Source: Methylocapsa acidiphila B2 (lineage in GTDB: Bacteria; Pseudomonadota; Alphaproteobacteria; Rhizobiales; Beijerinckiaceae). From it: 64,000 nucleotides of DNA. How positions within the stretch are numbered: the first letter of the stretch is position 1; every line of letters starts with the position of its first letter. The stretch covers positions 496,001 through 560,000 of the forward strand of contig NZ_KE386496.1 in the NCBI RefSeq assembly GCF_000427445.1. Reading direction: 5' to 3'. Both the position numbers and the translations under genes were made by a program. The notes beneath the pieces were generated by a model, which did not search any database, was not told where the DNA came from, and was given only the letters and a program-made list of their open reading frames with translations. This document shows positions 54,675-58,629 of the stretch, piece by piece.

Positions 54675-57269
54675 ATGAATATTGAAAAATATACCGAGAG
54701 AACCCGGGGCTTCATCCAGAGCGCTCAGTCGCTTGCCGTGCGGGAAGGCAATCAGCAGTTCACGCCCGAACATATTCTGAAGGTTCTTCTCGACGACCCG
54801 GAGGGACTCGCCGCCGGCCTGATCGATAAGGCGGGCGGCAATTCGCGCGACGCCCTTGTCGCGGCCGAGCTCGCGCTGGGCAAGCTGCCGAAAGTTCACG
54901 GCTCGGGCGCGGGCCAAGTCTATCTCGCGCCGGCGATGGCGCGCCTGTTCGACAACGCCGAGCAGATCGCGCAAAAGGCCGGCGATTCCTATGTCACGGT
55001 CGAGCGGTTGCTGCTGGCCCTCGCCATGGAGAAGGGCGCCGAAGCCGGCAAGATCCTCGAAAAGGCGGGCGTGACCCCACAAGGCCTGAACAAGGCCATT
55101 GAGGATTTGCGCAAGGGCCGCACCGCCGACAATCCGACGGCCGAGAATGCCTATGACGCCCTGAAGAAATATGCCCGCGATCTGACCGAGGCGGCGCGGA
55201 CGGGCAAGCTCGACCCGGTCATCGGCCGCGATGAGGAGATTCGCCGGACCATCCAGGTCCTCTCGCGGCGGACCAAGAATAATCCCGTGCTGATCGGCGA
55301 GCCCGGCGTCGGCAAGACCGCCATCGTCGAGGGTCTGGCGCTGCGCATCATTAATGGCGACGTGCCCGAGAGCCTGCGCGACAAAAAGCTTCTGGCGCTC
55401 GACATGGGATCGCTGATCGCCGGGGCGAAATATCGCGGCGAGTTTGAGGAGAGGCTGAAGGCCATCCTCAACGAGATCACCGCAGCGGCTGGCGGCGTCA
55501 TCCTGTTCATCGACGAGATGCATACGCTCGTCGGCGCCGGCAAGGCGGATGGCGCCATGGACGCCTCAAATCTATTGAAGCCCGCGCTCGCGCGCGGCGA
55601 GCTTCATTGCATCGGCGCGACCACGCTCGACGAATATCGCAAGCATGTCGAGAAGGACGCCGCCTTGGCGCGTCGCTTCCAGCCTGTGTTCGTCTCAGAG
55701 CCGACGGTCGAGGACACGATCTCGATCTTGCGTGGCTTGAAGGAAAAATATGCGCTGCATCACGGCGTCCGCATCACTGATGCAGCGATCGTCGCGGCTG
55801 CGACCCTCTCCAACCGCTACATAGCCGACCGTTTTTTGCCGGACAAAGCGATCGATCTCATCGATGAGGCGAGCGCGCGCCTGCGCATGGCGATCGATTC
55901 CAAGCCCGAGGAGCTGGACGAGCTCGACCGCCGAATCATCCAGCTCAAGATCGAGCAGGAGGCTCTGAAGAAAGAGACCGATGTCGCGTCGAAGGACCGG
56001 CTCGACAAGCTCGAGGGCGAACTGGCGGGCCTCGAGGAACAGGCGGCTGTGCTGACGACGCGCTGGCGCGCCGAGAAGGATAAGCTTGGCTCCGAGCAGA
56101 AATTGAAGGAGCAGCTCGAAGCAGCCACGGCTCAACTCGAGCAGGCCACGAGGCGCGGCGAATATCAGCGCGCGGGCGAGCTGACCTATGGCCTCATCCC
56201 CGAGCTTCAGGCTAAGTTGAAGGAGGTCGAGGCGAAGCGCGGCGAGGCGCTCGTCGAGGAGGCCGTGACGGCGGACCATGTCGCGCAAGTCGTCTCGCGC
56301 TGGACCGGCGTTCCGGTCGACAAGATGCTCGAAGGCGAGCGCGACAAGCTGCTTGCGATGGAGCAGGCGATCGGCAAACGGGTCGTCGGCCAGGCCGAGG
56401 CGGTCAAGGCCGTCTCGACCGCCGTGCGCCGCGCTCGGGCTGGACTCCAGGACCCCAATCGCCCGATCGGCTCCTTCATGTTCCTGGGCCCGACCGGCGT
56501 CGGCAAGACCGAGCTCACCAAGGCGCTCGCGGCTTTCCTCTTTGACGACGAGACCGCGCTGCTGCGAATCGACATGTCGGAATATATGGAGAAACACTCC
56601 GTAGCCCGGCTGATCGGCGCGCCTCCCGGCTATGTTGGCTATGAGGAAGGCGGCGCGCTAACGGAGGCCGTGCGCCGCAGGCCCTATCAGGTCGTCCTTT
56701 TCGATGAGATAGAGAAGGCCCACCCGGACGTCTTCAACATCCTTTTGCAGGTGCTCGACGACGGCCGGCTCACCGACGGGCAGGGCCGAACCGTCGATTT
56801 CCGCAATGTGCTGATCGTCATGACCTCGAATCTCGGCGCGGATTTTCTCGTGCTGCAGAAGGAGGGCGAGGATTCGAGCGCCGTCCATGCCGAGGTGATG
56901 CAGGTTGTGCGCGCGCATTTCCGTCCGGAATTCCTGAACCGAATCGACGAGATCATTCTATTCCATCGCCTGCGCCGCGAGGACATGGGCGCGATCGTCG
57001 ACATTCAGTTCGGCCGGCTCGCGAAATTGCTCGAGGATCGCAAGATTGCGCTTGATCTTCGTCCGGAAGCCCGCGTCTGGCTCGCCGACAAAGGCTATGA
57101 CCCAGCCTATGGTGCGAGGCCTTTGAAGCGGGTCATTCAGAAGAGCGTGCAGGACCCGCTGGCGGAGGCGATCCTGTCCGGCGCGATAAGGGATGGCGAG
57201 ACCGTCGTCATCGGCGCCGATTCGAAGGGGCTTGTGATCCGGGATCGGAACGCCAGCGCAGCGGCGTGA
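54675..57269 (+). CDS. clpB: ATP-dependent disaggregase ClpB
   Basis: 864 residues, standard length. N-terminal Clp repeats (about 1-145), first AAA+ domain with Walker A GEPGVGKT (208-215), a coiled-coil middle domain (about 400-525) and a second AAA+ domain with GPTGVGKT (about 605-612). ClpB rescues aggregated proteins with DnaK. GGAGG precedes ATG 54675. The final 194 bases occur again at 58436-58629 with about 83% identity, so the present C-terminus may have been brought in by recombination (see findings). Confidence 0.97.
57076..57269 (+). repeat. Direct repeat, copy A (3' end of intact clpB)
   Basis: Left copy of a 194-base direct repeat, encoding the last 64 residues of ClpB (from [19 protein letters not shown]) and the stop. 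Matches copy B at 58436-58629 without gaps; I count about 33 mismatches, most in the last 60 bases. Confidence 0.9.
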
Positions 57270-57455
57270 GCCTTCCTTGGGGCGGAAAAATATTTTCGTT
57301 CTGCATTGGGAGCATCTCGCAATGCGGGCAGATTGCATTTCTTTATGACGGTTGATGTCACCCGTTCTGTTCGTGTACTGATCTTTTCAGATATATCCGA
57401 ATAGCGGCACAAGTTCTAACCGCAAACTTTGTCTCTTCATTGGAGCCAACTTATC

Positions 57456-58295
57456 ATGGCTACGTTCAGTACAGCAGACTTCCAGAAGTCTGATATAAAG
57501 ACAAGTTTTTCTGGTCCATATATACGTCTTTCCGCAGTGCTAATAAGACTTCATATCAGTCAAGATTTATGGGGTAAATTGATAAATGCTAAGTTAATAG
57601 GTGATCTTAAGTTTGAGCAAGATAGAACTGTTTGGTGTAAAGACGATGATGTCCGTGCGGTTGTCGCCTTGCTGAATGAATCGGAGAGGTTCCGTAATTC
57701 AAAAGGAATGACGTCCGATCTATATGCTGATATTCAGCGTGAAATTAAAGATCGTGATTTCATTTTAGATGCAAGCATGTCGGCAGATATTTTGCGTGAG
57801 ACGTCAGTTCCAGCACAATACTTAAATTCTTACTCTGATTTGCGGAGGCTTACTGTTCACAGGTATCCTATGCTGCTCACGTATCTCGGCATCGACGGTG
57901 CCTTGACGCCGGAATCTGAAGACCGCCTTCACCGGACTATGCTCAAGTTATTCGATCGCATTTACGAGATACAAGATTGTTTCGATCCGCAGCTTCTATG
58001 TCTTGGTTCGATCAATCGGTATCGCGAATCAATCGATGACGTGACCACTCTGCTTATTGAAGGTCTTAGGTCTGAGGTTCTTTACGGCTCGGACGTGACC
58101 CCTTGCCACAGGGTCAAGGCAATTCATGCCCTGTTGCAGGAGTTTGCCACCAAACTAGTTCAGATTACGAATGCTCTTATTGAGGAGCGGCGAGCAATCC
58201 TTGCGGGGGAGAAGCAAGCAGCTTCGCAACGTGCAGCAGCTGCCGTTGTTGGCACCGCTGCGACAGTTGGCTTGCTCGCCTTGTTCTCTAACTGA
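57456..58295 (+). CDS. AT-rich orphan protein of unknown function with C-terminal hydrophobic tail
   Basis: 279 residues from ATG 57456; a further nine codons are open upstream. Base composition and codon use (many AT-ending codons) differ sharply from clpB and gyrB. The protein is mostly helical and charged, without signal peptide. It ends in a charged helix (IEERRAILAGEKQAASQR) followed by AAAAVVGTAATVGLLALFSN, a likely tail anchor or membrane-inserting segment. I recognise no catalytic motif and no family. It sits alone between two clpB 3'-end copies, which points to acquisition. A defence or toxin-like role is possible but only by analogy with such islands. Confidence 0.8.
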   Translation: MATFSTADFQKSDIKTSFSGPYIRLSAVLIRLHISQDLWGKLINAKLIGDLKFEQDRTVWCKDDDVRAVVALLNESERFRNSKGMTSDLYADIQREIKDRDFILDASMSADILRETSVPAQYLNSYSDLRRLTVHRYPMLLTYLGIDGALTPESEDRLHRTMLKLFDRIYEIQDCFDPQLLCLGSINRYRESIDDVTTLLIEGLRSEVLYGSDVTPCHRVKAIHALLQEFATKLVQITNALIEERRAILAGEKQAASQRAAAAVVGTAATVGLLALFSN

Positions 58296-58317
58296 CTTAT
58301 CCCTCAACATGCAACCT

Positions 58318-58333
58318 TGACGCCACGGCGTCA
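58318..58333. repeat. Short inverted repeat after the orphan gene
   Basis: Arms TGACGCC and GGCGTCA separated by two bases, 22 bases after the orphan stop. There is no T-run, so it may be a recombination or protein-binding site, or weak termination structure. Confidence 0.4.
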
Positions 58334-58435
58334 CTACGTGAGCCTACGACCAACTGGATGGCTGGTTCTAGAGTAGTATGTCGAGATTGACGTGAAACGG
58401 GCCCAATCGCGGTCGTCGGAATCGCGACGGAAAGA

Positions 58436-58629
58436 TCTGGCTTGCCGACAAAGGCTATGATCCGGCCTATGGCGCGAGGCCTTTGAAGCGGGTCGTTCAG
58501 AAGAGCGTGCAGGACCCGCTAGCCAAGGCGATCCTGTCCCGTACGATAAGGGATGGCGAGACCGTCGTCATCGGTGCCGACGCGAGCGGTATTCTGATCG
58601 GCGACAAAGCCGCCGCGCGGGCGGCGTGA
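58436..58629 (+). pseudogene. Stranded clpB 3'-end fragment (direct repeat, copy B)
   Basis: Encodes [21 protein letters not shown] and the rest of a ClpB C-terminus up to an in-frame stop, with no start or upstream domain. Aligned to the end of the intact clpB (57076-57269), the first 130 bases differ mainly at silent positions, while the last dozen residues differ in protein sequence. The pattern indicates descent from a once-functional clpB of another lineage, or the original resident end displaced by an insertion. Confidence 0.9.

What the first reader, a model, noticed from the sequence alone, without database searches (positions are those of the whole stretch)
57076..58629. clpB 3' end duplicated around an AT-rich single-gene island
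The last 194 bases of clpB recur 1360 bases downstream, without gaps and with about 83% identity; between them lies one gene of clearly different composition. Most differences in the first 130 bases are silent, so both copies have been under selection as ClpB coding sequence. The simplest reading is that incoming DNA carried its own clpB end and rebuilt the host gene, stranding the old end, as integrative elements do at tRNA or protein-gene ends. Alternatively the stranded end came with the foreign DNA. No integrase is visible in the island, so either it was mobilised in trans or the event was homologous recombination.
Basis: partly seen in the sequence, partly recalled or inferred. Interest (0 to 1): 0.82.

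Follow-up and report, generated by a model that had tools for sequence, protein, structure and literature searches.

The report
Foreign gene inserted behind clpB end
A piece of foreign DNA with one unknown gene seems to have inserted at the end of a bacterial heat-shock gene, bringing a replacement for that gene's last stretch and leaving the old end stranded beyond it; this is a clear but not unprecedented case of gene capture.

Summary
The last 194 bases of clpB (A, 57076-57269) recur gap-free at 58436-58629 (B), 161/194 identical. Between them lies one low-GC gene (57456-58295, 279 aa) with no relative found.

None of the 13 congener clpB stretches fetched shows a second tail; none of 396 other genomes holds the gene. 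As sampled, the event is confined to this lineage.

The copies are a mosaic. Over 57078-57212 they are sisters (support 100/99) and differ by 8%. After about 57214 they differ by 39%, as different species do. A breakpoint-free test puts the break at 57214 or 57220 (0 and 2 of 400 simulations reach it).

Best reading: incoming DNA carried its own clpB end plus the gene; that end now completes clpB. About 137 bases of host clpB were duplicated at the far junction and the old end was stranded. B looks like a relic, not a selected copy.

No recombinase was found in the window. The anatomy resembles e14 in icd, insertion with long target duplication, and homology-facilitated illegitimate recombination. 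The cargo's function is unknown.

The parts
54675..57269 (+). clpB (864 aa), functional copy; its last 194 bases are copy A
   Evidence: TIGR03346 chaperone_ClpB 1389.7 bits, above cut-off
57076..57213 (+). core of copy A: inferred host clpB sequence, recently shared with copy B
   Evidence: A+B sister 100/99 over 57078-57212, but only 85/79 over 57078-57183 alone; 8% difference
57214..57269 (+). end of copy A: C-terminus and stop, inferred to have come with the foreign DNA
   Evidence: 22 of 57 bases differ from B over 57213-57269; break at 57214 or 57220; less congener-like than B end for 12 of 13 congeners over 57213-57253
57270..57455 (.). left spacer of island, 45% GC, not similar to the sequence after copy B
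57456..58295 (+). island gene, 279 aa orphan; hydrophobic C-terminal stretch seen by eye
   Evidence: ORF and GC; no hit in Pfam, PADLOC, PHROGs at E <= 10 or NCBIfam at E <= 1; no convincing relative
58296..58435 (.). right spacer of island, 55% GC, ends sharply at the left edge of copy B
58436..58573 (+). core of copy B: duplicated clpB core, inferred to be decaying
   Evidence: I>V, E>K, G>R, A>T against A; A base in 13 of 13 congeners at three of the four; ClpB_D2-small 63.3 bits for 58438-58629
58574..58629 (+). end of copy B: inferred original host clpB end, stranded
   Evidence: closer to congeners than A end for 12 of 13; continues into the interval that follows clpB in M. aurea
58854..59342 (+). 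neighbour gene (162 aa) whose homologue follows clpB directly in M. aurea; marks the ancestral downstream side
   Evidence: 82% aa identity to L033, next to clpB there

Best explanation
In this Methylocapsa lineage a fragment of foreign DNA entered at the 3' end of clpB. Its left side was a clpB end from another lineage and it carried one AT-rich gene. Shown: two tails, one orphan gene between them, no second tail in 13 congener stretches, a recent shared core (57076 to about 57213), ends that differ far more than the core predicts, and replacements in the B core at conserved sites. Inferred: the fragment paired with host clpB near 57184-57213, so host clpB now ends in the donor's last ~18 codons. 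Its other end was joined without extended homology at host position 57076, upstream of the pairing point, probably on a sister chromosome. This duplicated about 137 host bases and left the old host end stranded on the route to gyrB. [quoted passage not shown]
For: One clpB tail in each of 13 congener stretches. Orphan gene in 0 of 396 other genomes searched. A+B sister in the core, 100/99. End/core JC distance ratio 6.3 for A-B, reached by 0 of 78 congener pairs; expected end difference 16.7%, observed 22 of 57, binomial P 7e-5 with the break chosen after looking. Breakpoint-free test: 0 of 400 simulations (per-site rates, break 57214) and 2 of 400 (smoothed rates, break 57220). A closer than B to 13 of 13 congeners over 57080-57183, B closer than A to 12 of 13 over 57213-57253. 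Bases shared by A and B but absent from all 13 congeners: 3 of 97 left, 5 of 29 in the identical block, 0 of 35 in the end. B flank leads to the same neighbour gene and gyrB as in M. aurea. No PF00589 or PF00239 match in the window.
Against: The AU test does not reject A and B as sisters in the end segment (p 0.47), and the left part without the identical block supports sisterhood only at 85/79; the mosaic rests on branch length. The switch of congener affinity is weak when permuted: p 0.033 free split, 0.063 fixed split, 0.12 by codon. The nearest congener by core identity, L033, is undecided in the end (9 differing sites like A, 9 like B), and B itself has bases found in 0 of 13 congeners at five end sites, against six for A. 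The 13 congeners are not independent. No donor and no empty-site strain was found; the nearest congener clpB is 83% identical. The pairing point, the sister chromosome and the illegitimate junction are not shown by any search.
Confidence: 0.57

Rival explanations
1. e14-type integration: an integrase-bearing element used the clpB 3' end as attachment site, supplied a new end and displaced the old one; the integrase and most of the element were later deleted, or it acted in trans. Gene conversion later made the two cores alike.
For: Same anatomy as e14 in icd, where 163 bp of the gene end are displaced and the element supplies the end (PMC6379469, passages). 16 tyrosine-recombinase and 7 resolvase-family matches exist elsewhere in the genome, the nearest about 16 kb and 22 kb beyond the window end.
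Against: No match of either family in the window; three small ORFs that overlap the island or copy B have no Pfam match. A uniform host-versus-element history is rejected unless conversion is added. 46 of 46 viral-contig hits to the tail lie in open frames of 610-875 codons, none tail-only.
Confidence: 0.2
2. Local duplication only: the insertion duplicated host clpB from 57076 to the stop as identical copies, and the A end then changed fast by relaxed constraint or error-prone repair.
For: Core differences fit two initially identical copies, with no A base absent from all congeners and five B bases absent. The AU test does not reject sisterhood in the end.
Against: Expected end difference 16.7%, observed 38.6%. 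The functional copy would be the one departing more from congeners (12 of 13). The duplication would have to stop at the stop codon, since the 60 bases beyond match at 17/60.
Confidence: 0.15
3. Campbell-type integration of a circle carrying a clpB 3' fragment plus the gene, by one homologous crossover inside 57184-57214.
For: Predicts A core and B end host-like; seen for 13 of 13 and 12 of 13 congeners.
Against: Like e14 it predicts an even relative divergence on both sides; the core is too similar. The affinity switch is statistically weak.
Confidence: 0.06

Closest known systems
Prophage e14 at icd of Escherichia coli (PMC6379469, passages)
   Same: The element supplies a new 3' end to a conserved protein gene and a displaced gene end of 163 bp remains as a duplicate
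   Different: e14 is a 15.2 kb prophage; here the insert is one orphan gene without a recombinase, and the two copies are mosaic
Insertion with long target duplication (Nobusato et al. 2000, not read; seen as cited in PMC1643837 and PMC3031569, passages)
   Same: Insert flanked by direct copies of a long target stretch
   Different: Frequently associated with restriction-modification genes; here the cargo has no such match and the gene end on one side appears foreign
Homology-facilitated illegitimate recombination (definition in the abstract of PMC3240628, search listing), as proposed for T6SS effector-immunity displacement in Vibrio cholerae and for orphaned rhs 3' ends (PMC5361080, passages)
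   Same: Anchor in a conserved gene stretch, new 3' end plus companion gene inserted, old 3' end shifted downstream
   Different: The anchor gene here is a housekeeping chaperone, not a toxin; the companion gene is unknown
Minimal mobile elements of Neisseria (search listing only; content recalled)
   Same: Small cargo without mobility genes between conserved genes, moved by homologous recombination (recalled)
   Different: They are not known to me for leaving a displaced gene end (recalled)

Membership tests
e14-type integrative element at a protein-gene 3' end | recombinase gene in the element | tested here: not met
   no PF00589 or PF00239 match in the window; island ORF and three overlapping small ORFs without family
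e14-type integrative element at a protein-gene 3' end | host reading frame complete at one boundary, a displaced gene end at the other | tested here: met
   clpB full length at A, truncated tail at B; that the element supplied the A end is inferred
e14-type integrative element at a protein-gene 3' end | common core at both junctions | tested here: inconclusive
   several identical blocks, longest 57184-57214; no independent insertion to compare
insertion with long target duplication | insert flanked by direct copies of target DNA that relatives hold once | tested here: met
   (core 57076-57213)
insertion with long target duplication | empty site in a closely related strain | not testable with these tools
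   nearest held congener clpB is 83% identical
insertion with long target duplication | restriction-modification cargo (frequent, not obligatory) | tested here: not met
   no Pfam, NCBIfam or PADLOC match to the island gene
homology-facilitated illegitimate recombination | homologous anchor at one junction | tested here: inconclusive
   history changes at 57214-57220 inside clpB homology; donor unknown
homology-facilitated illegitimate recombination | microhomology at the other junction | not testable with these tools
   donor sequence at 58436 unknown

The most novel reading that the evidence does not exclude
Recombinase-free single-gene cassettes move among methanotrophs by carrying the 3' end of a conserved gene as a homology handle, repairing the host gene as they insert; the orphan gene is one such cargo and clpB-gyrB is a docking interval.
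Probability: 0.08. Interest if true: 0.6.

Novelty: new member of a known kind. Interest (0 to 1): 0.34.

Why it matters
It is a readable record of how a new gene can be captured beside a housekeeping gene with no recombinase in sight: the mosaic of the two ends separates what probably came in from what was duplicated. If the reading is right, the present ClpB C-terminus of this strain is not its ancestral one. The orphan gene may deserve a functional test, but nothing here shows what it does.

Tried and rejected
Tandem duplication of tail plus island: rejected, because the island occurs once in the genome. A hotspot of clpB-end duplications: no second tail in 13 congener stretches. The order-level search examined 297 genomes, but its match list was cut by the tool; among the rows printed the window's B tail (77-aa frame) is the shortest frame. 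Frames of 179-396 aa in G369, G269, G506, G362 and G462 were not checked for contig ends, and G308, G394 and G400, which also had three matches, were not followed.

The 13-base repeat at 57418 and 59349 is absent from the 13 congener stretches and was taken as chance. Fold of the island protein: single-sequence model, mean pLDDT 60, no PDB match at E <= 0.001. Relatives of the gene: no match in phages at E <= 1, only E 0.2 matches in 4 Enterococcus plasmids; the collection scans 26 and 27 use short exact peptide patterns and find close relatives only. The clpB tail itself matches 129 phage records, not checked for tail-only frames; 9 plasmid records match the A-to-B stretch, those annotated under the match being clpB; 75 phage records match the longer clpB stretch, of which 20 were listed. 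An exact 30-base pattern found nothing in viral contigs. RNA families at 56900-60420: none. Promoter and terminator scans: at shuffle level.

Papers: no paper held all of clpB, integration site, attB and genomic island. Of 11 papers with clpB, attL and integrase, passages were read in two, which mention clpB as a neighbour of an island or tRNA insertion in Pseudomonas; nine were not opened. One search gave 57 papers, 10 listed, none of the ten with the term 'clpb gene'. (Methylocapsa) was seen as a listing only.

Full report
Where it is. The window lies in a 4.1 Mb genome of two contigs. A congener contig, G001:C2, has the same length (421,035 bases) as a scaffold named Methylocapsa aurea KYG in the other collection, so the window belongs to that genus group, methane oxidisers not known to me as pathogens (recalled).

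The observation. clpB (54675-57269, 864 aa) ends in copy A. Copy B at 58436-58629 matches A without gaps in 161 of 194 positions. Both edges are abrupt. B reads as 63 codons of ClpB_D2-small plus the same stop. Between them is a 279-aa reading frame of 46% GC.

The cargo. The protein matches nothing in Pfam, NCBIfam, PADLOC, PHROGs or the PDB sequences. It is absent at E <= 0.001 from 396 of 396 other genomes and from 397 of 397 others in the phylum sample, which overlaps the first set. Pattern scans of genome contigs and viral contigs, which find close relatives only, gave none; phages gave none at E <= 1; plasmids gave only E 0.2 matches in 4 records. The model is poor (pLDDT 60) and has no PDB match at E <= 0.001. 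Its C-terminus is hydrophobic by eye.

Congeners. Of 15 genus genomes searched, the window's own included, 14 matched clpB; G009, 77% complete, did not. The other 13 clpB loci were fetched. Each stretch shows one clpB tail. gyrB follows within the stretch in 12 of 13: 0.2-0.6 kb after clpB in nine, about 1.0, 1.6 and 2.1 kb in three; the L037 stretch shows none. Homologues of the 162-aa gene at 58854 follow clpB in 2 of 13 (L033, L037). The sequence after B is thus the older side and the island the newcomer (inference).

Which copy is which. Over 57078-57212, A and B are sisters with support 100/99; without the identical block (57078-57183) support is only 85/79. They differ by 8% over 57078-57212, and neither exceeds 81.5% identity to any of the 13 congeners over 57080-57214. 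In this core B has four replaced codons, three at bases identical in all 13 congeners. A is closer than B to 13 of 13 congeners over 57080-57183, while B is closer than A to 12 of 13 over 57213-57253. That switch alone is only suggestive: permutation p 0.033, 0.063 and 0.12 in three forms. L033 taken alone is undecided in the end (9 sites each way), and there A has bases found in none of the 13 at six sites, B at five.

The mosaic. From congener pairs, the end should differ by 16.7% given the core; 22 of 57 bases differ (P 7e-5, break chosen after looking), and 0 of 78 congener pairs reach the A-B ratio. A test that searches breakpoints, with site rates from the congeners, puts the break at 57214 (0 of 400 simulations reach it) or at 57220 with smoothed rates (2 of 400). 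The AU test in the short end segment does not reject sisterhood (p 0.47), so topology is open and the argument rests on branch length.

Reading. The core was duplicated within the lineage; the ends have different, older histories. B end is continuous with the older neighbourhood and A end with the island. Hence A end most likely arrived with the island, and host core was duplicated at the far junction. One homologous and one illegitimate junction give this in one step. Integrase-mediated integration plus later gene conversion gives it in two. No tyrosine or serine recombinase match lies in the window; the nearest are about 16 and 22 kb past its end. A ComEC-family gene is present, but the control finds the family in E. 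coli too, so it shows little.

Comparison. e14 in icd is the established anatomy (PMC6379469, passages). Insertion with long target duplication was described between Helicobacter strains (as cited in PMC1643837 and PMC3031569, passages). Stranded 3' ends after insertion of a new end plus companion gene are proposed for Vibrio T6SS loci and rhs (PMC5361080, passages). The present case shows such an anatomy at a housekeeping gene with an orphan cargo. I found no report of clpB used this way in searches, which cover open-licence papers only and of which I opened passages in two papers.

Verdict. A real, lineage-specific insertion as far as sampled; the mechanism class is known; the cargo is unknown. 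Interest moderate.

Noticed in passing
window 36311-39408 and 28013-28402: Diverged direct repeats of about 0.4-0.9 kb at 64-68% identity within 36311-39408, with short pieces also matching 28013-28402
   Followed up: no
L040 3337-4740: In congener G002 the clpB-gyrB interval holds a different long minus-strand frame that looks like a linear-amide hydrolase (named by eye, no family search); the interval accepts varied cargo
   Followed up: partly
L033 3613-4727, L037 3359-4338: The small gene at window 58854 occurs as a diverged tandem pair after clpB in two congeners; no Pfam family, one weak NCBIfam match only
   Followed up: partly
window 57184-57212: The block identical in A and B is unusually far from congeners (mean 60% identity), with five shared bases absent from all 13
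   Followed up: partly
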